Of a DNA stretch of 25,460 nucleotides, positions 537 to 25,361 are shown one piece after another (positions within the stretch are counted from its first letter, which is position 1; each line of letters opens with the position of its first letter). The DNA is taken from assembly GCA_002841685.1 (NCBI GenBank), contig PHAM01000026.1, positions 1-25,460 of the forward strand, written 5' to 3'. This stretch comes from Elusimicrobia bacterium HGW-Elusimicrobia-2 (GTDB lineage Bacteria > CG03). The notes under the pieces were generated by a model, which worked only from the letters and a program-made list of their open reading frames with translations, did not search any database and had not been told where the DNA came from. Position numbers and translations under genes: made by a program.

Positions 537-2588
537 TTATTGAAATTTGTTCTTTATTTTTTCCGCGATTCTACTCGCCATTTTTTCAATTTCTCTTTCA
601 GAATAACAATCCTCATTGGCGGAAAAAACAATTTGACCGCTTTCAACATCCACCACATTCACCGTCAGAATAAATCTTGAAAGCAGCTTACCGCAGCTGC
701 CGATGGTTATATAATGCACATTGAGCAGTTTGCCCATCTGAACCGCGCAGTTTTCCGTTGTGCAGCCCATCTGCTGAAAACCCTGCTCCGCCAATATTTT
801 ATCCATATTATTTCTGTCAACAACATTGAAAAATCCAATCTCCACCACGGCAGATCGGAAAAAATCAGTAATAAACGCTGATTCGGAAGCGGAAAGCGGA
901 GCCCTCGCCTCAAAATTGGATACAGCCATATTCTTGCCTGTTTTTTTCACACTCTCCTTATCGGCAATGCCTTCTATCTCTTTCAGCCTTTCCTTTGTTC
1001 TCCCGGAGACAGCGCTCTTCATATCATCGGCCTTCACTTTTGAGAGTTTGTAATTGCCGTCTTTAAATAATGTTTTCATCTCCGCTATTTTCTTCTTCGA
1101 ACCCGCTATTGATATGCCGTGCCCCGCGGCTTTGATTATCATATCTTCAACTTCCTCAATAGCTTTTGCCGACTGAATCTTATAGCTCTCTTCAATTGTT
1201 TTCCAGAATAAATTCACTTTATCCTGAGCTGACTTATAATCCTGCCGCTGGTATGCGTCCATGGATTGTGAATATATATCCTTCTGTTTTCTGACATCAA
1301 ATCCTATTTCCCCTGCGGCAATCAACTCGTTTTCAGTTTCAGTGATCCTCTTTCTCACGCTTTCCGGGAACAAACTCTTGAGCGTTTGAATCTTCTTGTC
1401 AGCGTCTTTATAGCCTTTAATAGACTCATTCGCTTTTTCATAATTTTCAAGAGCGTCTTTGTAATTCCCCGCCTTATAAAACCTCTCGCCCTGTTTGTAG
1501 AATTTTTCAGCGGCCATATATCTTCTTGCCGCGTTAATCCCCTCCCGCGCTTTTTTATAACCAGGACTTACTTCCGGCGCTTTTGACCACGCATCAATAG
1601 CGTTTTTAAACATTTCCCTGTTAAAATAACTCTCTCCGGAGCCATAAGACGACATATCCCCGAATTTCATCCTCATAGAAACAATTTGAGAACTCTCAAA
1701 ATCGCCGCGGTGAACAAAAGCGTAATCAATCCCGAGCCCCTTAACATTTATGCCGAAGCCCGCGGTAAATGTGTCAAGTTCATAGCCGAATCTGTAACCT
1801 CCCCTCAAAGCGAATCTGTCCCGCCACAAGTATTCAAAACCCAAATTAGTGTTGCCCTCCTCATTCTGGACATAATCGCACATAAGGGAAAGCTTTCTTG
1901 CATTTGTGTTGAACAGAAGAATTGATACTCCTCCGACAAACTCTTGTTGCAAAGGATCTTCAACGGAAATATATTTTAATCCGCTTCCGAAGTTGCGTGC
2001 GGAAAAGCCAAAAAGCACGCGGCCGCCTACGGGCCGGATTAACAAAGCGATATCTTCCGCATAAGCCGTCGCCTTGTATTGTTCCGCCAAAGCGCTTTGG
2101 AGCAGTTTCGCGTTTATCCCGAAAGACAGATCTTCCGACAATAATTGCGAATAAGTCAACACCGCCAAATAATCAATTCCAGCCCTCACCATCTTCGTCT
2201 CCTTGAATGAACCGTCGGGATTCGTTAAATTAAGTTCAATGTTTTCATCCTGTAATGTCGCCACGCTGCAGGCGAAGGCCGCGCGATAGGCGGGAAAAGG
2301 CCTGGCGAAACCTATAATCGCGTATTGAGAATTAAAAAGACTTTGATTATACGAGCTAAAAAAATCTGGATTTGTTAAGTACGAAAGCCCTGCCGGATTT
2401 GTCTGTACCGCGCTCAGCGAATCAAAGAAACAGGCCGACGCCCCGCCCGCACCCATTGCTCTTGCGCCGAGATTCGCGTTCAGAATTTCATTTCCCGCCG
2501 ATTCACCGACACCCGCGCGTAAAAACGAGCATTGAAAAAGCAACAGAGCAAGCAACAGAGAGTACGGCTTTTTAATCCTAAGACTCAT
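537..2588 (-). CDS. PorV/PorQ-like outer-membrane barrel fused to TPR-like region and CsgG-like C-terminal domain
   Basis: The frame is open from 2624, but I choose the ATG at 2588 (683 aa): it follows a GGAG about 8 nt upstream, gives a normal signal peptide (MSLRIKKPYSLLLALLLFQC) and overlaps the upstream stop as ATGA. After the signal peptide, about residues 30-330 resemble PorV/PorQ-type barrels: the opening GARAMGAGGASACFFDSLSA and NPAGLSYL, then alternating strands. Residues about 335-560 are helical with TPR-like repeats (FYKQGERFYKAGNYKDALEN). The last ~120 residues match the CsgG/FlgO-like domain: MAVSNFEARAPLSASES, VVDRNNMDKILAEQGFQ, GCTTENCAVQMGKLLNVHYI and a closing VDVESGQIVFSA. 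Location is probably outer membrane with a periplasmic tail. PorV proteins carry type IX secretion cargo in Bacteroidetes; here the role is inferred only. This barrel-TPR-CsgG fusion is unusual. It is a relative of the barrel protein at 20710-22167. Confidence 0.8.
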   Translation of the reverse strand: MSLRIKKPYSLLLALLLFQCSFLRAGVGESAGNEILNANLGARAMGAGGASACFFDSLSAVQTNPAGLSYLTNPDFFSSYNQSLFNSQYAIIGFARPFPAYRAAFACSVATLQDENIELNLTNPDGSFKETKMVRAGIDYLAVLTYSQLLSEDLSFGINAKLLQSALAEQYKATAYAEDIALLIRPVGGRVLFGFSARNFGSGLKYISVEDPLQQEFVGGVSILLFNTNARKLSLMCDYVQNEEGNTNLGFEYLWRDRFALRGGYRFGYELDTFTAGFGINVKGLGIDYAFVHRGDFESSQIVSMRMKFGDMSSYGSGESYFNREMFKNAIDAWSKAPEVSPGYKKAREGINAARRYMAAEKFYKQGERFYKAGNYKDALENYEKANESIKGYKDADKKIQTLKSLFPESVRKRITETENELIAAGEIGFDVRKQKDIYSQSMDAYQRQDYKSAQDKVNLFWKTIEESYKIQSAKAIEEVEDMIIKAAGHGISIAGSKKKIAEMKTLFKDGNYKLSKVKADDMKSAVSGRTKERLKEIEGIADKESVKKTGKNMAVSNFEARAPLSASESAFITDFFRSAVVEIGFFNVVDRNNMDKILAEQGFQQMGCTTENCAVQMGKLLNVHYITIGSCGKLLSRFILTVNVVDVESGQIVFSANEDCYSEREIEKMASRIAEKIKNKFQ

Positions 2589-3988
2589 CCCTTTCTCTCC
2601 CGCGTTTTTTCTATAACTTCCCAATGACCGTTCCTCGCTAACCCTATCCTTTTTATCACATCCAAATTTTTCAATGCAGCAAGATGTTTTTGTATCGCGG
2701 ATGGATTAATGTTTAATATTTCGGATAATTTTTTCCGCGATATTTTTGGGTTTCCGAGGATTAATTTCAAAATCTCAATTTGCCTTTTGGAGAGTTGTTC
2801 TGACCACCTATCTGACCACTTATCTGACCACCTATCCCCCAACCTATCACCCAACTTATCACCCAACCTGTCAGGGGAAGTTGCAACTTCCCTTCTATGC
2901 ATTTCAACAATAAAGCCGGACAGGTCATACTTATATTCCGGAACAGGCATTTTAGCTTTAACGCACTCGCTAATGATTTTTAAAGTCCCCCTGCCCCACG
3001 CTTCTATTAAACCGGCGCGAAAAAATGTGTTGGCGATATTGGGATTATACGGAATTGACGGATGTTTCCGGACGAGTTTTTTTACAGTCCAATTTTCCGG
3101 CAATTGCCCTTCATTCCAAAAAATAATTTTATTGCTGTAAACGCTGATTTGAACAGGCACGCCGCCGCTGTAGTCCTTATGAGTAACAGCATTTATAAAA
3201 GCTTCCCTCAAGGCCGCTTCCGGAAAAGGGTATTCCTCCACCCTGTTCACTCCTTCATAACTGATATTTGCCTTGAGATATTTTGTCAATAATAAATCAA
3301 GCCCCTTCTCTATCTGTTCAAACAGGCTGCCGTGAATCTCATCCTGAAAAAGCAAATCATCATCCGTTTTAAAATAACCTATCTTCACATAAGCGCCGGT
3401 AATAAATTTCTCCGGGTCGGGATGGAACAACAACACGGCCGCGCGCTTAAGATAATCCCCCTCCGCTAAATGCAGATTTTCAAGCAGGACATTATCGCTT
3501 GCCCGTATATCTTCTTCGCTCAATCTCTTGCTTTTAACAGCCCTTTTACGGAAACTATTAAAGGCGGCCTTGTCCAGGTCTTTCGCAAACACCTTAGGCA
3601 CAGGAACGCCGTCCCATCTTTTACCCTGTTTACCGAGCAGAAATTTATCCAGCACCGCGCCTTTTAGTTCCTGTTTGGTGCTCCCGCTGCGGTAATGATA
3701 TTTTCCTTTGTAGCTGATGGGATAGGGATACGGTTCAACAGCTATTTCTAAAACATCCTTGCCCTTTATCGACACAAGATTGACATCTATCATAATGCCT
3801 AAAATATCCCTGACCTTATTGGGGATATCTTCCAAAAGTTTCTTCGCGTTAGCAATACCGGTCACCAGGCCTTTGTCATTTTTGCCGATGAAAAGCTTTC
3901 CGCCCTGAGCGTTGGCAAACCCGCATATCCATTTCAGATAATCATCTTGCCAATTTTGTTTATATTCAATGTTCTGCTTTTCTTTCAT
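2585..3988 (-). CDS. AlbA_2 / HATPase / winged-helix transcriptional regulator-like protein (COG2865 type)
   Basis: This 467-aa protein has the layout of COG2865 'predicted transcriptional regulator / ATP-dependent helicase-like' proteins. An AlbA_2 (Schlafen AlbA_2) domain covers about residues 5-110 (EYKQNWQDDYLKWICGFANA, GGKLFIGKNDKG). A GHKL-type ATPase-like domain covers about 250-350 (EAALREAFINAVTHKDYSGG, then GLIEAWGRGTLKI). A C-terminal winged helix (about 405-460) contains QIEILKLILGNPKISRKKLSE and INPSAIQKHLAALKNLDVI. Between the ATPase and HTH lies a linker of six four-residue repeats (see the repeat at 2801-2872). A DNA-binding regulatory role is inferred from the family; targets are unknown. 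The stop overlaps the start of the PorV-like gene as ATGA, so translation of the two is probably coupled. The start at 3988 has only a weak GAG upstream. The gene lies 40 bp after the broken surface-protein gene. Confidence 0.85.
   Translation of the reverse strand: MKEKQNIEYKQNWQDDYLKWICGFANAQGGKLFIGKNDKGLVTGIANAKKLLEDIPNKVRDILGIMIDVNLVSIKGKDVLEIAVEPYPYPISYKGKYHYRSGSTKQELKGAVLDKFLLGKQGKRWDGVPVPKVFAKDLDKAAFNSFRKRAVKSKRLSEEDIRASDNVLLENLHLAEGDYLKRAAVLLFHPDPEKFITGAYVKIGYFKTDDDLLFQDEIHGSLFEQIEKGLDLLLTKYLKANISYEGVNRVEEYPFPEAALREAFINAVTHKDYSGGVPVQISVYSNKIIFWNEGQLPENWTVKKLVRKHPSIPYNPNIANTFFRAGLIEAWGRGTLKIISECVKAKMPVPEYKYDLSGFIVEMHRREVATSPDRLGDKLGDRLGDRWSDKWSDRWSEQLSKRQIEILKLILGNPKISRKKLSEILNINPSAIQKHLAALKNLDVIKRIGLARNGHWEVIEKTRERKG
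2801..2872 (-). repeat. 12-bp minisatellite, six units, inside the AlbA_2/HTH gene
   Basis: Six consecutive 12-bp units begin at 2801, 2813, 2825, 2837, 2849 and 2861. The first three read TGACCA(C)CTATC-like and the last three (A/C)CCCAACCTATC-like. On the coding strand they give, in protein order, DRLG DKLG DRLG DRWS DKWS DRWS. The R-K-R order is kept in both halves, so the array also reads as a duplicated 36-bp block whose two halves later diverged (LG versus WS). The length is a multiple of three, so gain or loss of units keeps the frame. Confidence 0.9.
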
Positions 3989-4028: not shown

Positions 4029-4769
4029 TCATTTCACCACCACCGCTTTCAGAATCTTGTCGTAAAAAGCTGTCTTGATATGAATAACATAAATTCCGCT
4101 GGCGACAGTATTGCCCCCCGTATTTTTACCCAGCCAGTCGGCGGTATAAACCCCCGCTCCCATTGACTGATTATCAATAATTTTTTTAATCAACGCCCCG
4201 CTGCGGCTATAAACCTCAATTGTCACATTTGACGCGGATGGGAGCTCATACCGGATTGTCATCGGCCTGCCGTCGGCAGGATTAAATAAATTGTCATAAA
4301 GTTTCACTTCCGCCGCCACCGCCTTAAAAACAACAAAAGAGGAACTTGCCGACGCCGACTTATGCCCCGCAGGGTCAATTAAAGTCACCTCAACCTGAAC
4401 CTTTGTCGCCAAAGGATAATTTTTTGTGATTGCACCCAGCGCAACCTGAGCACCAATCAGCCCATCCTGCCCTACGCTTAAATTCGCGAAAGTAATCCCC
4501 GTCGTGAGCGTCTGACCATTCTGATCCTTGATAACGATTTCGCAAGTTGTCCCCGCTTCCGCCGTCCCGGTTATATTCAATGTTTCATTGTCCGTTATTT
4601 CCGTGTCTGCCGACACTAAAGAAATATCTATATTTGCGGGCTCTTCCGAAGCCGTGAGCCAGACCTTTATCCCGTCGCTCCAGTCCGACCATTCAGAATA
4701 CAAACCCGCTCCGTTTACCACCCGAACTCTCGCATAATATGTCTTTTTATCCTCGCAATCGGTTACAGT
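4029..4769 (-). pseudogene. C-terminal part of the interrupted surface protein: FN3 end, Ig-like domain and FlgD-Ig/T9SS-type C-terminal domain
   Basis: This stretch continues the 4770-6590 gene in the same frame after a single TAA at 4770-4772. The 16 codons just after the stop (TVTDCEDKKTYYARVR) complete the fibronectin-type-III domain begun before it, and the next residues VVNGAGLYSEWSDWSDG finish it. An Ig-like module follows (DISLVSADTEITDNETLNI to SSSFVVFK). The last ~90 residues are a FlgD-Ig-like C-terminal domain: LYDNLFNPADGRPMTIRYEL, IEVYSRSGALIKKI, TVASGIYVIHIKT and terminal VVVK. In Bacteroidetes similar tails are type IX sorting domains. A GTG at 4721 could restart translation, but it lies mid-domain with no clear ribosome binding site, so I treat this as a fragment unless the stop is read through or is a sequencing error. 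Confidence 0.7.
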
Positions 4770-6590
4770 TTATTCCAAAACATCACCCATATTACCATTA
4801 TATTTGTAGTTGCCCGATTCATCGGGCGAAGTTGAAACCTGAAGCCAGTATCCGCCAATTCCGCTTTCAGCATCGGCAACGGTTCCCACCGCCCAAGTAA
4901 ATTTAATCGATGACGAATCGGCATCCGCTCCTATATCCGCCGGTATTCCCGATTTTCCTGTCGGCGATGACAAATCAACCATAAACTTTGTTTCCTCGCT
5001 CCACTCAGACCAGCAATTATCAAATCCGGAATTATCTTTGACTTTCACTCGCCAATAATAAGTGCTCCCCGATGTTAAATTCCAATCTGTCGGGGTCCAT
5101 GTATTTGTTGAGCTTAACATCTCGCCGGTGTCCTTAGCATTTCCATCGCCATAAGTTCCCGTTGAATATCTTAATTGAACTTGCAAAGCTGTTTGCGTAT
5201 CTCCGTCAACATCATAAAACTCCGCCCATAAAAAAACAAGATTAGTTGCGGCAATCCATTCTTCCTGCGGAGAAACAATAGCAAAAGTGGAAGGAGAACA
5301 ATTATAAGTTATTGAAAAGTCATAAAGACTGGGCGTCTGTGTGGAAATTGTAGTTATAAAGTTTACTTTGCACTGAATATATCGTGCAGAAAGTGAAGTA
5401 ATTGTATCTCCAGAAACGGTATAACTTGATGACCAACTTGACCAATAATCATCAGGAGTTAATGTGTTTCCTGTTCTGCTTTGTAAAGTTATGTCTGTTC
5501 CTGCAGGCAAACTGCTTGACCAATAAATATTTCCCCAATCTGCGATACTTCCTGCATTTTTAATTCGAGAGAGAAAATACCCCTGAGAAAAGCCAGTCCA
5601 CTGAAAATACCTAATATAATACCTGCTAATATCACCCTGCTCAGCAATATGTGGTTTATTATTACCATCTAAACAAAAAGAAACGTAATTATATTCATAG
5701 GCTGTTGAAATCTTTATTGACTCTTGGCCAGTACCGTCAGCATCAACCCATGAACTTCCATCCCATTTCAGATAACAAATTTCACAATTACCTGAACTTA
5801 TTTTTGACCACGCAATATGAGGATTCCCACTACCATCTAAAAATAAAGATGGATTAATGGCAGGGATATTTATAGATTCCTGGCCAGTACCGTCAACATC
5901 AACCCACGAACTACCATTCCATTTCAGATAACTTGCATACCCCGTAATATGCGGGTTCCCACTGCTGTCCAAACAAAGAGCAGGTTCGCACAAAAAAGAA
6001 TGACCTTCTAAAATACTTGTTGCTTCCTGACCAGTGCCATCAGCATCAACCCAGGATGAGCCGTTCCAATAAAGATAAGAAATCCCATAATTATTAGACG
6101 CTATAACACCGCACCATGCAAGATGGGGATTCCCGCTGTTGTCCAAACGAAGTGAGGGATAATATCCATTATTATTGGAAATACTTATTGATTCCTGTCC
6201 TACGCCATCCGCATCAACCCAGGATGAGCCGTTCCAATAAAGATAATAAATCTTATAATCGCCCATCCAAGCAATATGCGGATTCCCACTGCTGTCCAAA
6301 CAAAGCGAAGGACTCGTAAAATAAGCATCCCCGCTGGAAATAATTATTGATTCCTGTCCTACACCATCAGCATCAGTCCACTCTCCTATTAAGTGCATTT
6401 CATTGTTTCCAACAGCAACACTTGATAATGTCCCTGCATTAAAATCTTCATCTGATGTCTGCAACCAAGTAGCCGCATAGCAAAGAGAAGAAATAAAACA
6501 CAAAAATATATTTACGGTTAAAAACGGAATAAAAAGAGTTATTATTTTTTCCTGCTTAATATTTCTATAAAAGGCTTTGCCTGTATTCAT
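4770..6590 (-). CDS. Secreted repeat/FN3 surface protein, N-terminal part, ended early by an in-frame TAA
   Basis: This 606-aa frame starts at ATG 6590, only 6 nt after the stop of the SIR2-like gene, and without a strong ribosome binding site. Residues about 15-40 form a signal peptide (IITLFIPFLTVNIFLCFISS, then LCYA/A). Residues about 60-330 hold five copies of a ~45-56-residue module with WVDADGTGQESI, LCLDSSGNPHIAW and YLYWNGSSW as landmarks, reminiscent of beta-propeller blades. Next comes a ~110-residue beta-rich domain with many Trp, then FN3-like modules (WRVKVKDNSGFDNCWSEWSE). The frame ends in the middle of the last FN3 domain at ...GNMGDVLE. The in-frame continuation at 4029-4769 carries the expected end, so the intact protein would be about 853 aa. 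The likely location is the cell surface or outside the cell; function is unknown. Confidence 0.8.
   Translation of the reverse strand: MNTGKAFYRNIKQEKIITLFIPFLTVNIFLCFISSLCYAATWLQTSDEDFNAGTLSSVAVGNNEMHLIGEWTDADGVGQESIIISSGDAYFTSPSLCLDSSGNPHIAWMGDYKIYYLYWNGSSWVDADGVGQESISISNNNGYYPSLRLDNSGNPHLAWCGVIASNNYGISYLYWNGSSWVDADGTGQEATSILEGHSFLCEPALCLDSSGNPHITGYASYLKWNGSSWVDVDGTGQESINIPAINPSLFLDGSGNPHIAWSKISSGNCEICYLKWDGSSWVDADGTGQESIKISTAYEYNYVSFCLDGNNKPHIAEQGDISRYYIRYFQWTGFSQGYFLSRIKNAGSIADWGNIYWSSSLPAGTDITLQSRTGNTLTPDDYWSSWSSSYTVSGDTITSLSARYIQCKVNFITTISTQTPSLYDFSITYNCSPSTFAIVSPQEEWIAATNLVFLWAEFYDVDGDTQTALQVQLRYSTGTYGDGNAKDTGEMLSSTNTWTPTDWNLTSGSTYYWRVKVKDNSGFDNCWSEWSEETKFMVDLSSPTGKSGIPADIGADADSSSIKFTWAVGTVADAESGIGGYWLQVSTSPDESGNYKYNGNMGDVLE
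5600..6383 (-). repeat. Five-copy ~140-170-bp coding repeat (WxDxDGxGQE modules) in the surface-protein gene
   Basis: Five modules, each opened by W-(T/V)-D-(A/V)-D-G-(V/T)-G-Q-E, can be read on the minus strand. Some copies are nearly identical in DNA: 6043-6078 and 6211-6246 are the same over 36 bases and lie 168 bp apart. The segments around 5948 and 6277 also share most bases. DNA-level identity, not only protein similarity, points to recent duplication or gene conversion within the gene. Confidence 0.85.
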
Positions 6591-6596
6591 GTTTTT

Positions 6597-7640
6597 TTAT
6601 TCACTTTTAAGAATCATTTTCAGTTCGTCTATCGATTCATCATTTAATTTTTTACTGATTTTAATAAAATTGTCGGGTGTAAAAAAATCCCAAATCATAC
6701 TACCAAAATGTTTTTCAATACGTTCGCCAATAAAATTAGCTTCTGGGTCAACAATTGTAATTTTCTTTTCCATACTTCTGGTATACACTTTTTTAAAAAA
6801 GCTTGATAACATAAGCCATAAAACGCTATCCTCCGGCCGTAATCCGCAACCAATTATTATGAGATTTTTAGCAATATCCATTTTTTCAATTGTATCGATA
6901 ATTAAACGTTCAATTTGTTCATGCGGAATTTTGATATAACTTGGCGCAATTACATAAGGTTTAGCATGTAGCCCTTCATCATACGCCCCATATCGTTGTG
7001 AAGTTTTAGGACAAAATTTAGAATTAATTTCAACACCAATATATGTTTCCGAAGACTTGAGATAATTGCATAATCTAAAATTTTCGCATCCATGTATTTT
7101 GTGCAATAAAATATTTTTTATATCTTCGTTTTTATGGATTTTATCTCTACATTTGATTGCGGTGTTACCAATAAATTCTGAATAACCGCCATTAGGTGAC
7201 CACACCTCATAATAATCCAATAAAGCCGCCGTAAAGGTTGTATAGTTTAAATCTACTATAACATTATTTTGCGCCAATATATGAGTAACAAATCTGCCTA
7301 ACCAAGATTTTTCTTTTACAATACTTTCATTAAATCTAAATTGGGCAAAATATTCCGCAATCAATGAATTGAATTTTTCGCGAAATAGTTTAATTTCATC
7401 CTTATCTTTTCCATTTTCCCTGAGAATTTGAATATCTAAACAAGTGAGAAATTCTTCAATATTTTCTGTTCGATATTTTGTTAAGTATTCGTTAAATTTG
7501 TCCGAGACAATTTTATTCTTTGCAAATTTTTTTAATTTATCTAATAATTTGTTATTCAGTGGAGCTTTCTCGTCGAACACGGCTCTATCAAAACCAGCAC
7601 CTAACAAATAAACATTGTTTACTTTTGCTTCGCTCGTCAT
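6597..7640 (-). CDS. SIR2-like domain protein (possible NADase/defence-type)
   Basis: The 347-aa product shows the landmarks of bacterial SIR2-like Rossmann proteins: VYLLGAGFDRAV at about 10-21 (nucleotide-binding Gly motif), VIVDLNYTTF at about 127-136 with N132, LLHKIHGC at about 178-185 with H183, NLIIIGCGLRPEDSVLW at about 259-275, and ITIVDPE at about 294-300. In related proteins the Asn and His take part in NAD+ cleavage, and many such proteins are anti-phage effectors; that role is inference here. The gene is visibly more AT-rich than the thi/tkt operon and has no strong Shine-Dalgarno, which suggests transfer. Neighbours are an RHH antitoxin-like gene 137 bp upstream and the broken surface-protein gene 6 bp downstream. 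I saw no additional transmembrane, TIR or STALD segment. Confidence 0.72.
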   Translation of the reverse strand: MTSEAKVNNVYLLGAGFDRAVFDEKAPLNNKLLDKLKKFAKNKIVSDKFNEYLTKYRTENIEEFLTCLDIQILRENGKDKDEIKLFREKFNSLIAEYFAQFRFNESIVKEKSWLGRFVTHILAQNNVIVDLNYTTFTAALLDYYEVWSPNGGYSEFIGNTAIKCRDKIHKNEDIKNILLHKIHGCENFRLCNYLKSSETYIGVEINSKFCPKTSQRYGAYDEGLHAKPYVIAPSYIKIPHEQIERLIIDTIEKMDIAKNLIIIGCGLRPEDSVLWLMLSSFFKKVYTRSMEKKITIVDPEANFIGERIEKHFGSMIWDFFTPDNFIKISKKLNDESIDELKMILKSE

Positions 7641-18845: not shown

Positions 18846-19535
18846 ATGAAAATATATTTGAGCGGATTGGCTTTTAACGATGGGAAAGTAAAATACAATG
18901 ACGAACGCCTGATAAAGCTAAGCGACAAATTCAAGCCGAAAAAAGTCGCGCCATTTTTCGCGGAATTCACAACGGTTGATCCCGAACAGGCGGACGCGCT
19001 CGCCGTGATGAAAGAGACTCTCCTTGATTTGCTGATCCCCGACATGGAAAAACTGGAAGGGCGCCTGGCGAGGAGCGAAAGTCAGGATGAAAAAAAACTT
19101 CTCGTAAAATGCATCCGGGCCATGGAAGAAGAAAAAGTCCTCTGCGATCTGGAATTGAGCGGCGATGAAAAAAACATTCTCAAAGCCCTCGCGCCTTTAA
19201 CCTTTAAACCCACAGTGGTTCTCGCCGGAGAAATCACGACAGATGAACTCATTTCGCGCGCGCTGAAAAAAGCCGGGATCATATTCTTCTACACGGCAGG
19301 GAAAGACGAATGTAAGGCCTGGCCGGTGGAAAAGAATTCTAACGCCCTCACCTGCGCGGGAAAAATACACAGCGACCTCGCGCGCGGTTTTATACGCGCG
19401 GATGTGGTGCCCTTCGACGGCATGATGGGTGTTTTCAACATGCACGAGGCCAAAGAAAAAGGTCTGGTCAAAACCGTGGAAAAGAACCACATCATTGAAG
19501 ACGGGGACATAATAGAGATAAAATTCAACGTCTGA
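18846..19535 (+). CDS. YchF/OLA1-like protein lacking the GTPase P-loop (DUF933/TGS C-terminus)
   Basis: The 229-aa product resembles the later parts of the translation-associated ATPase YchF. Residues 13-45 (GKVKYNDERLIKLSDKFKPK, then PFFAEFTTVDP) look like the segment after switch I joined directly to the start of the helical insertion. Residues 46-115 form the coiled-coil arm (ADALAVMKETLLDLLIPDME, CIRAMEEEKVLCDLELSGDE). Residues 120-128 (FKPTVVLAGE) match the strand after the arm. Residues 146-229 are the DUF933/TGS-like end: FFYTAGKDECKAWPVEK, GKIHSDLARGFIRADVV, EAKEKGLVKT and DGDIIEIKFNV. There is no GLPNVGKST P-loop, no DIAG and no NKxD; full YchF is about 360 aa. A nucleotide-free RNA- or ribosome-binding role is inference. 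It starts with no leader and its 3' end overlaps the convergent HEAT-protein gene by 11 bp. Confidence 0.8.
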   Translation: MKIYLSGLAFNDGKVKYNDERLIKLSDKFKPKKVAPFFAEFTTVDPEQADALAVMKETLLDLLIPDMEKLEGRLARSESQDEKKLLVKCIRAMEEEKVLCDLELSGDEKNILKALAPLTFKPTVVLAGEITTDELISRALKKAGIIFFYTAGKDECKAWPVEKNSNALTCAGKIHSDLARGFIRADVVPFDGMMGVFNMHEAKEKGLVKTVEKNHIIEDGDIIEIKFNV

Positions 19536-20697
19536 ATTCTTTCAGTATTTCGGCCGCCCTGCCTTTAAGACTTTCGGAGACATCCGGCCTTTCCATTAAC
19601 CTCTTCAGCGACGCTTTGATCTGTTCGAGAACGCATATATGTTTATCGTCTTTGAGCACCGCGACCAGCGCTACCGTCTCTTCTTCGGCCAGTTCCGCCA
19701 GAGCCCACACGGCGCTGGACCTCATCCATTCGTTCGGGCTCGAAATCATATCTTTGAATGTGGCTGTGGCGAGCTTTCTGTTATGACGGTAAAGGGCTTT
19801 CGCGGCATTAGCGCGCACCCGGTTGCTGACATCATCAAGGTAGGGCAAAAAGAAAGTCGTCGCTATATTCGGGTCTTTTTCAGTTTTCAGTTCTTCCTCG
19901 ATAAATTCTATTCTCCTGGCCTTCTCCCTGACTATCGGGTCTATGTCCGTTATTGTCTCGTGCGTGGAATTCCTCATGAGCGGAGGAAGCGACGAATGCC
20001 GGGAAAAGCCGCGCATCTCGTCCATGATTTTTTTCTGATGCTCCAGCGTAACGATCTCCCTTTTCTCAACAAATCTGCTCATGATAGCATGCATTAAATA
20101 AAAGGCCGCCAAAAGGATCAGGGCAAAAAGCGCTATGCCTGCCAGGATCATCTCATTCATTCTGGCCCTATCGGCTTCGCGCGCGGATGAGATCTCCAAG
20201 AGAAGTTTCTCCCTTTCTTTTTCGCTTTGTTTCAGCAGGCTGTTTATCGTTTCCAGGCCGTAGTTGAAATTCGCGGAAAATTTGTCTTTCTGTTGTTTGA
20301 ATTCTTTGATCAGCGCGTTGAGTTCTTCCTCTTTCGCGGCGGAAGATTCCGCCACCAGGCCCCTCTCGGACATCCGGCGGCACAAAAGAAGCATCTTCCT
20401 GATCTCCTGATTGTCAGGATCCATATTCCCGGCCTTTGTCAGATATGCCTGAGCGGAAACATAGTCATCAGCCAGAAAGCTCTCGGAACCGTATTCCGTG
20501 AGCATCTTCACAAAAAACTCCTTCATCTCGCCGTTTTTGCCGTCCAGGCTCAAAGCTGTTTCCATCAGCGCCATGCTCTCCCGCTTCTCTCCTTTGATAT
20601 ACTCAGCCACGGCCCTGTTAAAAACATCTTTTGCCGTCTCTGCGGAAAGATTCTGGAAAACAGCCAGAAAAATAATAAGCAATAATTGTTTTTTCAT
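19525..20697 (-). CDS. Membrane protein with signal peptide, TPR-like repeats, coiled coil, one TM helix and HEAT repeats
   Basis: No named family is recognised for the 390-aa protein. Residues 1-19 are a signal peptide (MKKQLLLIIFLAVFQNLSA). Residues 20-115 are TPR-like (VFNRAVAEYIKGEKRESMAL, YVSAQAYLTKAGNMDPDNQE). Residues 120-180 are a charged coiled coil. Residues about 183-205 form one transmembrane helix (MILAGIALFALILLAAFYLM). Residues 255-385 are HEAT-like (VSNRVRANAAKALYRHN, EWMRSSAVWALAELAEEE). TPR and coiled coil should therefore face the periplasm and HEAT the cytoplasm, suggesting an inner-membrane scaffold. The start at 20697 has AAAGGAG and AGG upstream. It lies 12 bp after the PorV-like gene and is the last gene of the operon from 25319. 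A role in assembly or signalling for the surface proteins is inference from this context. Confidence 0.75.
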   Translation of the reverse strand: MKKQLLLIIFLAVFQNLSAETAKDVFNRAVAEYIKGEKRESMALMETALSLDGKNGEMKEFFVKMLTEYGSESFLADDYVSAQAYLTKAGNMDPDNQEIRKMLLLCRRMSERGLVAESSAAKEEELNALIKEFKQQKDKFSANFNYGLETINSLLKQSEKEREKLLLEISSAREADRARMNEMILAGIALFALILLAAFYLMHAIMSRFVEKREIVTLEHQKKIMDEMRGFSRHSSLPPLMRNSTHETITDIDPIVREKARRIEFIEEELKTEKDPNIATTFFLPYLDDVSNRVRANAAKALYRHNRKLATATFKDMISSPNEWMRSSAVWALAELAEEETVALVAVLKDDKHICVLEQIKASLKRLMERPDVSESLKGRAAEILKEFRR

Positions 20698-20709: not shown

Positions 20710-22167
20710 TTATTTCGGATCTTCCCCGGCGCCGTGCTCGCCCAAAAATTTTCTGAGCCGCTGCAGCAGTTTTAAAACACCCGTATCGGCCGGCGACAGC
20801 TTCAAAGCGTCCTCTAAAAACTTCTTCGCCTCCAAATACTCTCCCTTGTTGAGCGCCTTATACGCAAGGCATCTGCTCTGCAGAAGCGCGGCGCTCTTAT
20901 TCGCCGGATCTAAATTCAGGATCTCATCCACGGTTTTCAGACAAGTGTCAAAGTCGGATTTGCGCAGCTGCTCCCGCGCGGCCGTGAACAAATCCCTGCT
21001 CTTCTGTTTTTGGGCTTTTTCTTCAATCTTCATCTCAATGTTAAAGAGCGCTTCCAGATCCTCGGCGGTATCGGATTCTATCATGGCGATCTCTCTGAAT
21101 TCCGCCCTGGCCAGTTCATATTTGTCGTTCAGGAAATATTCTATGGCCGTATTTGTCAGTTTGTCATATACCTGTTTCGCTTTCCGGAGTTCATCGCCCC
21201 GCCGTTCAAGTTCCTTACGGCTGCTGTAATACAATTTGGCCTCTTCGGCCGCATCCGTGTCAAAGTAAAATGTTACGCTCAACATGTGTTTAATTCCGAG
21301 CTCATGGAACACAAGAGCGTAATCCACTGAACAGCGCTCAGTGGTGACGGCAAAACCCGCGCTCAATTCCTTATAGTTCAATCCCGCGGCCAGCGCGAAA
21401 ACCGGCGAGATCATATAAGAGCAGCCCGCCTTCCACAGCGTGCCGGAGCCGGCGCCGGGACGGATGAGGTCCAGAGAAGGCTTTATTTTTCCTCCGGGCA
21501 ATTCTCCCGCCGCGCCGAAGATCAGATTACTGGAATAATCATCAGCACTATCTTTTAATTTCAATGAGGGGCTGATGAAATTTTGAACACAGAAAGACAC
21601 ATCAGCGTATTTCCAGGAAGATATAATGCCCAGGTCCGCGCCGACGGAGCTGGCGCGGTAAGTGTCCATACTCTGCGACAGCAGTTTGATATTCGTTCCA
21701 GCCGCGAGCTTATCTTTCACCGGATAGGCGAATGAAAAAATAAAAGATTGTTCTTTAGCGTCAAAACTTCCAATACTCTCTCTCAGAAGAGATGTTTTTT
21801 CAGCCATCGCCGATTCCACCCCGGCGAATGAAACACCCATATAGGAAGATTTCGGAAGGAAGGTAACGGGCCCGAATTTATGCCCGCCGCCGATAAAATA
21901 ATAATTTCCGCCGTCAAACATGGGCCTGTAAAAAAAGGACAACTCGTCTCTTTCCAGATCACAGAGTGATGCGGGGTTAAGATACACGCCCGCGAGATTC
22001 CCCCTGAGCGCCGAGCCGCTGCCGCCCCTGGCGGCCTGCGCGGCGTCGCCGGAGAGGACAAGAAGATAATCGCCCGGCCTGCCTCCGGATGCGTCTCCGG
22101 AATAATAAGCTCCGGCGGCTGAGGCAAAGCCCGCCGCTATACAGAAGACGAATATCCGCGCAGTCAT
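20710..22167 (-). CDS. PorV/PorQ-like outer-membrane barrel protein with C-terminal TPRs
   Basis: The 485-aa protein has a signal peptide (MTARIFVFCIAAGFASAAGA). A PorV/PorQ-like barrel covers about residues 25-310: SGDAAQAARGGSGSAL, GVYLNPASLCDLERDELSFF, MGVSFAGVESAM and final strands ending in MLSVTFYF. A linker with coiled-coil character follows (about 315-350), then TPR-like repeats (YFLNDKYELARAEFREIAMI, REQLRKSDFDTCLKTVDEIL, ALNKGEYLEAKKFLEDALKL). Barrel plus periplasmic TPR tail is the expected location. It shares the barrel and TPR plan with the protein at 537-2588 but lacks the CsgG-like end. Its ATG overlaps the stop of the FN3/FlgD-Ig gene as ATGA, so the two are probably translated together. 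PorV homologues deliver proteins with C-terminal sorting domains to the surface in type IX secretion, which suits the neighbour; no PorU, Sov or GldKLMN is in the window. Confidence 0.82.
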   Translation of the reverse strand: MTARIFVFCIAAGFASAAGAYYSGDASGGRPGDYLLVLSGDAAQAARGGSGSALRGNLAGVYLNPASLCDLERDELSFFYRPMFDGGNYYFIGGGHKFGPVTFLPKSSYMGVSFAGVESAMAEKTSLLRESIGSFDAKEQSFIFSFAYPVKDKLAAGTNIKLLSQSMDTYRASSVGADLGIISSWKYADVSFCVQNFISPSLKLKDSADDYSSNLIFGAAGELPGGKIKPSLDLIRPGAGSGTLWKAGCSYMISPVFALAAGLNYKELSAGFAVTTERCSVDYALVFHELGIKHMLSVTFYFDTDAAEEAKLYYSSRKELERRGDELRKAKQVYDKLTNTAIEYFLNDKYELARAEFREIAMIESDTAEDLEALFNIEMKIEEKAQKQKSRDLFTAAREQLRKSDFDTCLKTVDEILNLDPANKSAALLQSRCLAYKALNKGEYLEAKKFLEDALKLSPADTGVLKLLQRLRKFLGEHGAGEDPK

Positions 22168-25100
22168 TTAAGCACTCCTATCAGCCTGCGCCGGCTCTGC
22201 TCGCCCCCGGAAGATGGATGAACAGTAAGATTCAGGATATATACGCCGTTTGCGACAACCGAGCCATGGCCGTTTCTTCCGTCCCATGTGATGATATTCG
22301 TCGTTCCCGTCGGAGTCCCCGCTCCCGAAGCGCTGAATTTTTTAACAAGCTCTCCGAACGGGCTGTAGATCTCAAATTCCAGCACGGAATCTTCGGTTAA
22401 AACGCATTCTATTTCCGTATTTTCAATCAGGGGGCTAAAGGGGTACGGGTAATTTTTCACATCGCCGGAGACAGAAGCCGGAGCGGCGTAATTGAGAATC
22501 CTGAAATAAGACAGATCACGCACCTTTGCCGTCACCTGTCTGGCCTGGATGTCGATCTGCTGATCGTTCACGACGGCCCATTTTCCATTCGCCTCGTCAA
22601 GAACAAACAATTTTGTTGTTGAAGGCGCGACAACATCAAGGCCGTCATAGTCAAAAACCAGATTGAAGGTATAAGCGGACGCGTCCGCGACGGCTCCGTT
22701 CAGAGAATTCTTCAATTCGATCTTATAGCTCGGCCCTCCGGGGATTGTCATGATGGGCGAGACTGACGCCGCTTCATCAGCCAGGGAGGTGAGGGAATCG
22801 CTCACTTCCGCCGCATCAATATAAGCGGTCGGGGGAAGATCCGGCGATTGAACGCTCAAACGCCCGCATAATATTTGAGACCATTTCACATAAAAAGAAA
22901 ATGTCTCACCGCTCATCCTCTCCCCGCCCTGAGAATCTTCCGCGAACACCTGCCAGAAATAAGTGGTGAAATCCGACAGAATGGATGTGTTGCTGATTGC
23001 GTAGGTATTTGTGGAAACAGGGAAAACCTCCAATAGAACAGTCTCCGGAAAAGTGGAGGAATAGACGAGAAAGCGATAATTGACCGAGTCACCGCTCGGA
23101 AGGTCAGGATCTCCATTGCCCTGCCATACAAATTCGGGAGTGAGCATGGATACCTCTCCTGAATCCTCCGGAGACAGCAAAGAGAAAGGCAGCGGGGAAT
23201 GATTGACATTCCAGACGCTGAATTTCCCCGAAACGGCCGATGACACCAGCACGCCGTCCGACACCTCCACTATTATCTCATAATCACCGCCGTCAGAATA
23301 AAGGCTCGTGTCCAGAATATATGACGTGGTCCCCTTCCTTAAACCTTCTGCGAAATAAAGTTTTTCCTCAATAAGCTGCGGAGACGCGGAGGGCCCTGTT
23401 GAAATAAAGAGATTGAAATAAACCCTGTCATAGAAATTGATGTCTTCAAAATCCCATTCTATGAGCATCAGCCCTGTCTCAATATTTCCCGCCTGCGGTT
23501 TTTTGACGCTGGCCGTCGGAGCATTATCGTTATTGTTTATGCTGAAATCTCCGGTTTCCGCGCTTGTTCCGGATAATCCGCCGCTGTCAGATGCGCTTAT
23601 TTTAAGCCGGAAAAATGCGCCGTTGCCCGATAAAGCGCTGTTCCATGTCCAGCGGTCCACCGACACATCAGAAAGCTCATGAAGGAGCGTATAAGTTATC
23701 CCCCCGTCATTGGATAAAAAGATCCTTATATCGTGAAACGCGTCTCCCGAATTGGGATCCGAGACCTGCCAGACGATATCGCTGTTTCCCGATACGGTGT
23801 CACCTTCAAAAGGGGCGATCACAGTAACTGCCGGCGCAGCGTTTGTCAGGGCCGAGGCGAAATTTGACACTGGGGAAATGTTGCCGGCCGTGTCGCGCGA
23901 ACGGACGGTAAAAAAATATTCCGCGTTATTCTGGAGCCCGGGGATTGTCAAATTCTCAAGATTACCCGGCGATTGCGGTGACGGCCCGGGTATAGAATTC
24001 ACCGAAGCGATATCTGCTTCTGTAAAACTGAAACTGGCATAAAAAACCTCATAGCCCGCGAGATTGTCAAACGGGGGATCGGAAGGGCTCATCCACAGCA
24101 ATTGGATCTCCCCGTTGGCGGAGCCTGTAATAGCATCCAGATCCCCTATTTGCAGCGGAGGAGAGAGATCAACAAAAAATGTGAAGGTTTCCGACCATTC
24201 CGATTCATCGCTATAACCGTCTCTGGCCTTCAACCTCCAGAACCAGGTCTTCTGGGAAAGACCGGATGACGGCAAAGAAAGAGCGTCAATACCGGAACTG
24301 TCTATGAGCGGCGAGACAAAAGCGCTGTTGTCAGCCAGCTGCAGACGGTAAAGAATATTTTCGCTGTCGGGATCATACGCTTCGTTCCAGAACAGGGTCG
24401 GAGTGGTGTAATTTATATAAAATTCCTCGGGCGGCGACGCCGGAACAGCCGGTTCCGGAAAAGAATTGCTGTTGATGGTGATAAGCGACAACTCAGGCGT
24501 CTTAGACGGGTCAGGCGAAGTTAATATCGCTCTCCAGCGGACATATCTGTAGGAAACATAATCGCCTATATCTGTCAGCCAGCCGAACCATACAATAGAA
24601 TTTGTTGAAAAGCTGAACTCATAATTGATTGTTCCCGAGCTGATCTCATGGTTTACAGAATAAGACAGATATCTCGCCCGGCTCGTGCCCGAATCATAGC
24701 CGTTGGATCTCCCTTCAGCGTATGTCTGATAATTTGTCCTGAAGAGGATATCCGGCACACCGGTGATAACGCCGGTTGAAATGTCCGGGAAACCGTCAGT
24801 CCCCGAAGAAACGCAGGCGGAACTGAGTTTAATATAGTCATTTTCATACGGGATGGGCAGAGAAAACACGGCGCCGTCTGAAACCACGACAGACACCCTG
24901 TAAAACGACGAGGTTGAAAGCCGCACCGGCTCTATCTCCGTCCATGCCCAGCCGGTGGTGCCGGAAACAAGAGCCGTGGCAAGGCAGTCACCCTCGTCAG
25001 ACCATAGATTGAGCGTGTAGGTTTCCAGATCGCTCGAGGGCAGATACCTGCCCAGGCCTATTATGGCTCCCGGAACGGCAACTCTGAATCTCCAGCCCGC

Positions 25101-25319
25101 CTCCCTGTTGACGGGTATCATGTCATCTGAATTCTCGTTCTCAAAAAGTTTGCTCCGCGTTGAGGGAAGCCTTAGAACGCCGTCGCCTGTGTCCCAGTCG
25201 GCGTTTGTGCCTATGGAATCCCTATGGACGGCGGTCGCGAAATCTTCGCTCACCGTCATCGCGCTGGAAGACGCGCAGACGCCTGCGGCAAAACAAAAAA
25301 GGATAAGAATTTTTTTCAT
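22164..25319 (-). CDS. Large secreted multi-Ig/FN3 surface protein with FlgD-Ig (T9SS-type) C-terminal domain
   Basis: The frame is open from 25334, but I choose ATG 25319 (1051 aa), which follows AAGGGA about 5 nt upstream and begins with a clean signal peptide (MKKILILFCFAAGVCASSSA). After a jelly-roll-like N-terminal part come several FN3/Ig-like modules, recognisable by YTTPTLFWNEAYDPDSENIL, WFWRLKARDGYSDESEWSE, GYEVFYASFSFTEAD, YFFTVRSRDTAGNISPVSNF, APAVTVIAPFEGDTVSGNSD, LLSPEDSGEVSMLTPEFVW and TTYFWQVFAEDSQGG. The last ~85 residues form a FlgD-Ig-like tail: VKNYPYPFSPLIENTEIECV, LEFEIYSPFGELVKKF, ITWDGRNGHGSVVANGVYIL and terminal RRLIGVLK. The protein is probably exported and surface-bound; no enzymatic motif is visible. 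It is the first gene of a three-gene operon with a PorV-like barrel and a TPR/HEAT membrane protein. The tail and FN3 content make it a distant relative of the broken protein at 4029-6590. Confidence 0.85.
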   Translation of the reverse strand: MKKILILFCFAAGVCASSSAMTVSEDFATAVHRDSIGTNADWDTGDGVLRLPSTRSKLFENENSDDMIPVNREAGWRFRVAVPGAIIGLGRYLPSSDLETYTLNLWSDEGDCLATALVSGTTGWAWTEIEPVRLSTSSFYRVSVVVSDGAVFSLPIPYENDYIKLSSACVSSGTDGFPDISTGVITGVPDILFRTNYQTYAEGRSNGYDSGTSRARYLSYSVNHEISSGTINYEFSFSTNSIVWFGWLTDIGDYVSYRYVRWRAILTSPDPSKTPELSLITINSNSFPEPAVPASPPEEFYINYTTPTLFWNEAYDPDSENILYRLQLADNSAFVSPLIDSSGIDALSLPSSGLSQKTWFWRLKARDGYSDESEWSETFTFFVDLSPPLQIGDLDAITGSANGEIQLLWMSPSDPPFDNLAGYEVFYASFSFTEADIASVNSIPGPSPQSPGNLENLTIPGLQNNAEYFFTVRSRDTAGNISPVSNFASALTNAAPAVTVIAPFEGDTVSGNSDIVWQVSDPNSGDAFHDIRIFLSNDGGITYTLLHELSDVSVDRWTWNSALSGNGAFFRLKISASDSGGLSGTSAETGDFSINNNDNAPTASVKKPQAGNIETGLMLIEWDFEDINFYDRVYFNLFISTGPSASPQLIEEKLYFAEGLRKGTTSYILDTSLYSDGGDYEIIVEVSDGVLVSSAVSGKFSVWNVNHSPLPFSLLSPEDSGEVSMLTPEFVWQGNGDPDLPSGDSVNYRFLVYSSTFPETVLLEVFPVSTNTYAISNTSILSDFTTYFWQVFAEDSQGGERMSGETFSFYVKWSQILCGRLSVQSPDLPPTAYIDAAEVSDSLTSLADEAASVSPIMTIPGGPSYKIELKNSLNGAVADASAYTFNLVFDYDGLDVVAPSTTKLFVLDEANGKWAVVNDQQIDIQARQVTAKVRDLSYFRILNYAAPASVSGDVKNYPYPFSPLIENTEIECVLTEDSVLEFEIYSPFGELVKKFSASGAGTPTGTTNIITWDGRNGHGSVVANGVYILNLTVHPSSGGEQSRRRLIGVLK

Positions 25320-25332
25320 TATTCCCTTGTGC

Positions 25333-25361
25333 ATTTTATCTTATTTTCGCTTTTTTGTCAC
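25333..25361 (-). promoter_or_regulatory. Candidate promoter of the FN3 - PorV - HEAT operon
   Basis: On the minus strand GTGACA (25361-25356) and TAAAAT (25338-25333) are 17 bp apart and each matches the consensus in five of six positions. The predicted start near 25326 leaves a very short leader that would cut into the AAGGGA ribosome binding site. A second, weaker pair (TTGCTT with TACGAT, 17 bp spacing) lies further upstream near 25389-25417. Nothing else was recognised from 25362 to the window end. Confidence 0.4.

What the first reader, a model, noticed from the sequence alone, without database searches (positions are those of the whole stretch)
20710..25319. Surface protein with FlgD-Ig/T9SS-type tail paired with a PorV-like barrel-TPR protein, found twice in 25 kb
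At 22164-25319 / 20710-22167 and again at 4029-6590 / 537-2588, an exported FN3/Ig protein ending in a FlgD-Ig-like C-terminal domain lies upstream of a PorV/PorQ-like barrel that carries periplasmic TPRs. In type IX secretion PorV is the shuttle for proteins with C-terminal sorting domains. The repeated pairing suggests cargo-plus-dedicated-barrel modules, perhaps a lineage-specific variant in which each barrel has its own TPR or CsgG-like tail. The domain reading is from sequence; the secretion role is inference.
Basis: partly seen in the sequence, partly recalled or inferred. Interest (0 to 1): 0.68.

Follow-up and report, generated by a model that had tools for sequence, protein, structure and literature searches.

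The report
Surface proteins paired with dedicated carriers
Uncultured bacteria labelled Elusimicrobia carry dozens of gene pairs, each coding for an exported surface protein with a type 9 secretion tail and, overlapping it by four bases, its own PorV-like outer-membrane barrel, which suggests a version of type 9 secretion in which each cargo has a private carrier and which lies outside the bacterial group it is usually said to be confined to.

Summary
The pairing is real and genome-wide. In the window's genome (an NCBI-labelled Elusimicrobia lineage) 29 genes end in a type 9-like Ig tail and 29 encode PorV-like barrels. 18 tail genes are followed at once by a barrel gene, 16 with an exact 4-nt overlap; about 0.5 would be expected. 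Across 11 genomes of the phylum there are 286 tails and 281 barrels (r = 0.87). Predicted structures match the PorU tail and Flavobacterium PorV. An SprA/Sov translocon homologue occurs in 11 of 11 genomes. Best reading: a type 9-like system with one dedicated PorV-type carrier and anchor per cargo, about half of the barrels carrying a recognised periplasmic domain (TPR, CsgG-like, OmpA). In Flavobacterium, dedicated carriers are known for type B cargo (SprF/PorP), while type A tails share one PorV. C25 peptidase occurs in 5 of 11 genomes, all one family. PorK and PorM were not found in this genome, nor PorL in the phylum, but without a positive control. Function is inferred, not shown.

The parts
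22164..25334 (-). Cargo B: 1056-aa exported protein with signal peptide, DUF4082, FN3/Ig domains and C-terminal type 9-like Ig tail
   Evidence: Pfam hits; tail hit E 1.9e-22 ending at the stop codon; orthologues 93% and 74% identical in two same-genus genomes
22167..22463 (-). C-terminal domain of cargo B, a 7-strand Ig-like sandwich
   Evidence: Model pLDDT 95.4; best PDB match is the P. gingivalis PorU C-terminal domain, Foldseek E 4.6e-5, VIA Z 11.7, rmsd 2.5 over 96 residues
20710..22167 (-). PorV-like barrel (about residues 28-303) with C-terminal helical/TPR extension; overlaps cargo B by 4 nt
   Evidence: PorV_fam E 8.9e-16 (below curated cut-off); own-lineage model E 8e-73; structure pLDDT 85.8; Foldseek top F. 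johnsoniae PorV 8gl6_F E 4.5e-10; VIA Z 30.3 to 6h3i_F, tied with FadL
19525..20697 (-). TPR - transmembrane helix - HEAT-repeat protein, 12 nt downstream of the barrel gene; possible inner-membrane partner
   Evidence: Pfam TPR_2 and HEAT; same order in G003, 91% identical; partner role is inference
4770..6590 (-). N-terminal part of cargo A (signal peptide, BNR-like and Ig domains), ended by in-frame TAA at 4770-4772
4029..4721 (-). C-terminal part of cargo A, same frame, with FlgD_ig / T9SS type A tail (CTD at 4032-4310)
   Evidence: FlgD_ig E 1.2e-11; TIGR04183 25.0 bits against cut-off 23; CTD E 2.5e-26
2585..3988 (-). AlbA_2 (Schlafen-type) / HATPase_c_4 / HTH gene lying between cargo A and its barrel; apparently an insertion
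   Evidence: absent from the homologous locus in G002 (L100)
537..2588 (-). PorV-like barrel with TPR and CsgG-like C-terminal tail
   Evidence: PorV_fam 110.7 bits (cut-off 90), CsgG 27.8 bits (cut-off 20.8)

Best explanation
Each pair is one unit of a type 9-like secretion system. The cargo is exported by Sec, then crosses the outer membrane through the SprA/Sov homologue, recognised by its C-terminal Ig tail. At the translocon the tail is taken up by the PorV-type barrel encoded just downstream, in overlapping reading frames, so that cargo and carrier are made together in near 1:1 amounts. Because most cargoes have their own barrel, and most genomes lack a PorU-type peptidase, the cargo most likely stays bound to its barrel, which then acts as its outer-membrane anchor. 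The periplasmic tail of about half the barrels (TPR, CsgG-like, OmpA) would tie the complex to peptidoglycan or to envelope partners. Shown here: the gene pairing, the folds, the SprA homologue and the numbers. Inferred: export through SprA, tail-barrel binding, permanence of the anchoring, and the role of the periplasmic tails.
For: 29 C-terminal tails, each ending within 3 residues of a stop codon; 18 followed immediately by a PorV gene, 16 with exact 4-nt overlap. 286 tails and 281 PorV hits over 11 genomes, r = 0.87. In 30 stretches from ten relatives, 20 of 36 tail genes have PorV as next gene and 30 of 36 within three same-strand genes; 15 of 20 gaps are -4. Tail fold matches PorU, PorZ and a T9SS-bound substrate CTD. 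Barrel fold matches PorV. SprA homologue, TIGR04189 E 8.5e-44 to 5.4e-59, in 11 of 11 genomes. Cognate tail and barrel distances correlate after removing recent duplicates (Mantel r 0.28, p 0.001). In F. johnsoniae, dedicated carriers beside type B cargo are required for its secretion and anchor it (PMC12618676, PMC9143113, PMC12635249).
Against: No binding or secretion shown. PorV_fam score of the window barrel at 20710-22167 and all SprA scores lie below the curated cut-offs. FadL and BamG are the same fold, so the fold alone does not make a carrier (PMC12611786). PorK and PorM not found in this genome and PorL not in the phylum. A few tails (C65, C74, C52, C48) have no barrel gene nearby. 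Co-duplication of neighbours could produce the Mantel signal without binding specificity.
Confidence: 0.72

Rival explanations
1. Shared-carrier model: this is ordinary type A secretion, with several redundant PorV copies that take any tail and then release it; adjacency only coordinates expression.
For: The tails are type A-like: one window tail passes TIGR04183's cut-off and they match the PorU and PorZ tails. Some tails have no barrel nearby. Several cargo genes can precede one barrel gene (L103, L104, L106).
Against: Near 1:1 numbers over 11 genomes, 4-nt overlaps and co-varying tail/barrel distances are not expected if a single recycled carrier suffices, as described for F. johnsoniae PorV (PMC12618676). 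Most genomes lack a C25 peptidase to release the cargo.
Confidence: 0.15
2. The barrels are not carriers but structural or uptake outer-membrane proteins (FadL/BamG-like), and the Ig tails dock cargo on them after export by another route.
For: FadL and PorV match the barrel equally well by VIA Z (30.6 and 30.3); BamG is a FadL-family barrel that anchors a surface lipoprotein (PMC12611786).
Against: PorV_fam/PorQ models hit the window barrels best; PorV is Foldseek's best match; SprA is present in 11 of 11 genomes; the tail sits at the extreme C-terminus in 29 cases.
Confidence: 0.1
3. The FlgD-Ig tails are generic Ig domains with no sorting role, and the neighbourhood reflects co-inherited surface gene clusters.
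For: FlgD_ig is a promiscuous domain and the fold also matches FlgD, glycosidase and streptococcal peptidase Ig domains.
Against: 29 end at the stop codon, follow varied N-terminal parts, and 18 are directly followed by PorV genes, as also seen in other families of the phylum.
Confidence: 0.03

Closest known systems
Type 9 secretion system, type B CTD with PorP/SprF-like dedicated carriers (Flavobacterium johnsoniae)
   Same: Carrier gene next to its cargo gene; many cargo/carrier pairs per genome (9 of 12 adjacent in F. johnsoniae); carrier anchors the cargo; outer-membrane barrel carrier with a periplasmic C-tail
   Different: Here the carriers are PorV-family rather than PorP/SprF-family, the tails are type A-like Ig domains rather than type B, many periplasmic tails are full TPR/CsgG/OmpA domains, and the lineage is outside Bacteroidota
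Type 9 secretion system, type A CTD with the single PorV shuttle
   Same: Ig-like 7-strand C-terminal domain, PorV-like barrel, SprA/Sov translocon homologue
   Different: One PorV serves all type A cargo in F. johnsoniae (PMC12618676); here there are 9-35 PorV-family hits per genome, mostly placed beside the cargo, PorU-type peptidase is patchy, and PorK/PorM/PorL homologues were not detected where searched
PorP-PorE-like anchoring complexes
   Same: Outer-membrane carrier tied to the cell wall is the proposed fate of non-mobile type B cargo (PMC9143113)
   Different: Here the wall-binding type of domain (OmpA) is fused to the barrel itself in some copies (C72, L100)

Membership tests
Type 9 secretion system | SprA/Sov translocon | tested here: met
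   TIGR04189 E 8.5e-44, several stretches, 1713 aa; 11 of 11 genomes; scores 149-199.6 bits, under the 200-bit cut-off. A homologue, shorter than the 2319-position model
Type 9 secretion system | C-terminal sorting domain at the extreme C-terminus of Sec-exported cargo | tested here: met
   29 tails ending within 3 residues of the stop codon; fold matches PorU, PorZ and a translocon-bound substrate CTD
Type 9 secretion system | PorV-type carrier | tested here: met
   NF033709 hits in 11 of 11 genomes, over the cut-off in each; model matches PorV
Type 9 secretion system | PorL/PorM motor and PorK ring protein (GldL, GldM, GldK) | tested here: inconclusive
   GldM and GldK: no hit up to E 10 in G000. 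GldL: no hit over cut-off in 11 genomes. No control genome rang for SprA, so none is a known T9SS user and the sensitivity for distant forms is unknown; GldN not searched
Type 9 secretion system | PorU C25 sortase | tested here: inconclusive
   C25 protein in 5 of 11 genomes, all in one family, with the tail in three of them; absent from the other families. It could be a sortase or a cargo
PorV family | FadL-like barrel with PorV-family sequence | tested here: met
   NF033709 E 8.9e-16 (58 bits, under cut-off 90) for 20710-22167 and E 1e-31 (110.7 bits, over) for 537-2588; structure
PorV family | Binds cargo CTD at the SprA lateral gate | not testable with these tools
   No complex prediction available
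T9SS type A CTD (TIGR04183) | Score above the model's cut-off | tested here: inconclusive
   Met for window 4029-4721 (25.0 bits, cut-off 23) and for the C25 protein of G005 (30.6); not listed for 22164-25334

The most novel reading that the evidence does not exclude
A type 9-like secretion system outside the Fibrobacterota-Chlorobiota-Bacteroidota group that works without the PorK-L-M-N energy chain: PorV-type carriers bring their own periplasmic handles (TPR, CsgG-like or OmpA), through which the loaded carrier is pulled off the SprA homologue and fixed to the wall, so that carrier specialisation replaces the shared ring and motor.
Probability: 0.25. Interest if true: 0.82.

Novelty: new variant of a known kind. 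Interest (0 to 1): 0.62.

Why it matters
SprA was called specific to the FCB group as late as 2025 (PMC12611786), and type A cargo is held to share one PorV (PMC12618676). Here another phylum has an SprA homologue, a near 1:1 set of type A-like cargo and PorV-family carriers, and gene overlaps that point to the partner of each. If confirmed, it shows that dedicated carriers are not a peculiarity of type B cargo and SprF, gives a few hundred natural cargo-carrier pairs for working out recognition rules, and asks how the translocon is energised where PorK, PorL and PorM cannot be found.

Tried and rejected
MotB-like gene near SprA (C93:782-1579) as an alternative motor: rejected as a lead, since that neighbourhood is kept only within the genus, while SprA-ComF recurs across much of the phylum. 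ExbB-ExbD-TonB downstream of the C78 cargo-PorV cluster: kept in G001, not in G005, so no general link. phmmer of SprA-like and C25 proteins against PDB sequences: nothing at the thresholds used. Pfam SprA_N in G000 alone: E 1.1, uninformative; better in relatives. FlgD_ig hits in C69 and C12 are internal or weak and were not counted as tails. Literature searches for T9SS with Elusimicrobia or other candidate phyla gave no report of this arrangement in the held library, which lacks many subscription papers.

Full report
What was claimed.

Check of the window. Pair 2 holds: 22164-25334(-) encodes a 1056-aa protein with DUF4082, Ig and FN3 domains and a FlgD_ig tail, and 20710-22167(-) encodes a 485-aa PorV_fam barrel with TPRs; the genes overlap by 4 nt. 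A third gene, 19525-20697, with TPR, a hydrophobic transmembrane-like stretch and HEAT repeats, follows after 12 nt. The same three genes in the same order occur in a same-genus genome (G003, L087), with 93, 95 and 91% identity; G001 (L088) has the first two, and its contig ends about 560 nt beyond the barrel gene, so the third cannot be judged there. Pair 1 is damaged: the cargo frame 6590-4029 is cut by one TAA at 4770-4772, and an AlbA_2/HATPase gene lies between it and the PorV-TPR-CsgG gene 537-2588. In G002 (L100) the homologous cargo is one ORF and overlaps its barrel gene by 4 nt with no gene between, so the window shows a decayed or disrupted copy of the same arrangement (or, for the stop, an assembly error).

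Where it comes from. The window is a whole contig of a 1.78-Mb, 96%-complete genome. Its SprA-like protein is 82% identical to that of 'Elusimicrobia bacterium CG03_land_8_20_14_0_80_50_18'. Eleven genomes of at least 85% completeness are held for its phylum; the GTDB phylum name is not shown by the tools.

The genome-wide test. PorV_fam finds 25 hits in the genome; a model built from these recognises 29 PorV-like genes in the stretches read. FlgD_ig finds 15 places. A model of 20 tails (A1; invariant G, W and Y) finds 33 places, of which 29 end within three residues of a stop codon. Of these 29, 18 are followed directly by a PorV-like gene; 16 of the 18 overlap it by exactly 4 nt once start codons are placed. 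One more (C67) follows after 360 nt and three more after one or two inserted genes (C13, C66 pair 1, C27). In C77 the PorV gene lies directly upstream. C71, C74, C48, C65, C52 and a second C27 tail have no adjacent barrel gene. With 29 PorV genes among an assumed 1,700 genes, about 0.5 adjacencies are expected; the binomial probability of 19 or more is about 4e-27.

The phylum. Tail hits per genome are 30, 11, 34, 28, 24, 23, 35, 14, 20, 31, 36 and PorV hits 25, 9, 31, 28, 22, 19, 35, 21, 26, 34, 31: totals 286 and 281, Pearson r 0.87. Among the listed hits of the ten other genomes, 56 of 129 tails have a listed PorV within 1.2 kb downstream on the same strand; both lists were cut, so this is a lower bound, against about one expected. 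In 30 stretches from those genomes, 20 of 36 tail genes have PorV as next gene and 30 of 36 within three same-strand genes; 15 of the 20 gaps are exactly -4. The first twenty stretches were chosen mainly by tail score, the last ten mostly for their PorV hits, so the second set is biased towards pairs. Several cargo genes can precede one barrel gene (L103, L104, L106).

Structure. The cargo B tail models as a seven-strand sandwich, pLDDT 95.4. Its best PDB match is the C-terminal domain of P. gingivalis PorU (Foldseek E 4.6e-5; VIA Z 11.7, 96 residues, rmsd 2.5), with PorZ and a translocon-bound T9SS substrate also listed; other Ig domains score nearly as well, so the fold alone is not specific. 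The barrel models at pLDDT 85.8 with an N-terminal helical segment, a beta barrel and a helical C-terminal part. Foldseek's best match is F. johnsoniae PorV in the substrate-bound translocon (8gl6_F, E 4.5e-10); VIA gives PorV Z 30.3 and FadL Z 30.6, a tie. Sequence profiles favour PorV_fam.

Machinery. An SprA/Sov homologue of about 1,650-1,730 aa is found in 11 of 11 genomes (TIGR04189; whole-protein E 8.5e-44 in G000, up to 5.4e-59 in relatives, 149-199.6 bits against a cut-off of 200). It is followed by a ComF-like gene in most of the stretches read. Peptidase C25 is found in 5 of 11 genomes, all in the window's own family; three of these proteins end in the same kind of tail. GldM and GldK gave nothing in G000 up to E 10, and GldL nothing over cut-off in the phylum. 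None of the control genomes rang for SprA, so none is a known T9SS user and these absences are weak evidence.

Periplasmic tails. 16 of the 29 barrels carry a Pfam-recognised domain after the barrel: mostly TPR, five CsgG-like, one OmpA, one HhH with TPR. The others stop near the end of the barrel, have an unrecognised extension, or were not scanned because they are barrel-sized. So 'each barrel has its own tail' is too strong.

Cognate signal. For 22 pairs the distance matrices of tails and barrels correlate (Mantel r 0.65; r 0.28, p 0.001 after dropping two recent duplicates). This fits joint inheritance or co-evolution and cannot tell them apart.

Mechanism. In F. johnsoniae the substrate is recognised by its carrier within SprA, and energy is needed to pull the loaded carrier off (PMC10994853). 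Type A tails use one PorV; type B cargo each uses a dedicated PorP/SprF-like carrier, often encoded next door, to which it stays bound (PMC12618676, PMC9143113, PMC12635249). The present genomes combine the type B logic (private, adjacent carrier) with type A-like parts (Ig tail, PorV-family barrel). The scarcity of C25 peptidase suggests that cargo is not cut from its tail and stays on its barrel. The fused periplasmic domains would then be the anchor to wall or envelope partners. These last steps are inference.

Standing. The arrangement is best filed as a new variant of type 9 secretion, in a lineage outside the FCB group to which SprA was described as specific (PMC12611786). I could not test whether other phyla share it, nor exclude that subscription papers report it. 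An earlier survey found T9SS only in Bacteroidetes using models that required several components (PMC4793230).

Noticed in passing
window 4770-4772: Single in-frame TAA splits cargo A; a same-genus homologue (L100) is one ORF. Could be a pseudogene or an assembly error.
   Followed up: partly
window 2585-3988: Schlafen AlbA_2 / HATPase_c_4 / HTH gene between cargo A and its barrel, absent at the homologous locus of G002; its stop overlaps the barrel gene's start by 4 nt.
   Followed up: partly
L031 3447-4119 and L051 3517-4199 (G000 C13, C27): Small gene pairs resembling a nucleotidyltransferase and its HEPN-like partner lie between cargo and barrel genes.
   Followed up: no
L034 1328-3038 (G000 C78 6327-8037) and L126 8373-10083: ExbB-ExbD-TonB-like genes downstream of a cargo-PorV cluster, kept in one same-genus genome but not in G005.
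   Followed up: partly
L038 5243-6667 (G000 C14): A PorV-like barrel with a helix-hairpin-helix (HHH_3) domain in its C-terminal extension, an odd combination.
   Followed up: no
L117 859-3240, L118 838-3252: C25 (gingipain/PorU-type) peptidases that themselves end in the sorting tail, found only in the window's own family.
   Followed up: partly
L059 (G000 C69): A 6,219-aa open frame with an internal FlgD_ig-like domain.
   Followed up: no
window 6597-7640: 347-aa ORF directly upstream of cargo A with no Pfam match at E 1.
   Followed up: no
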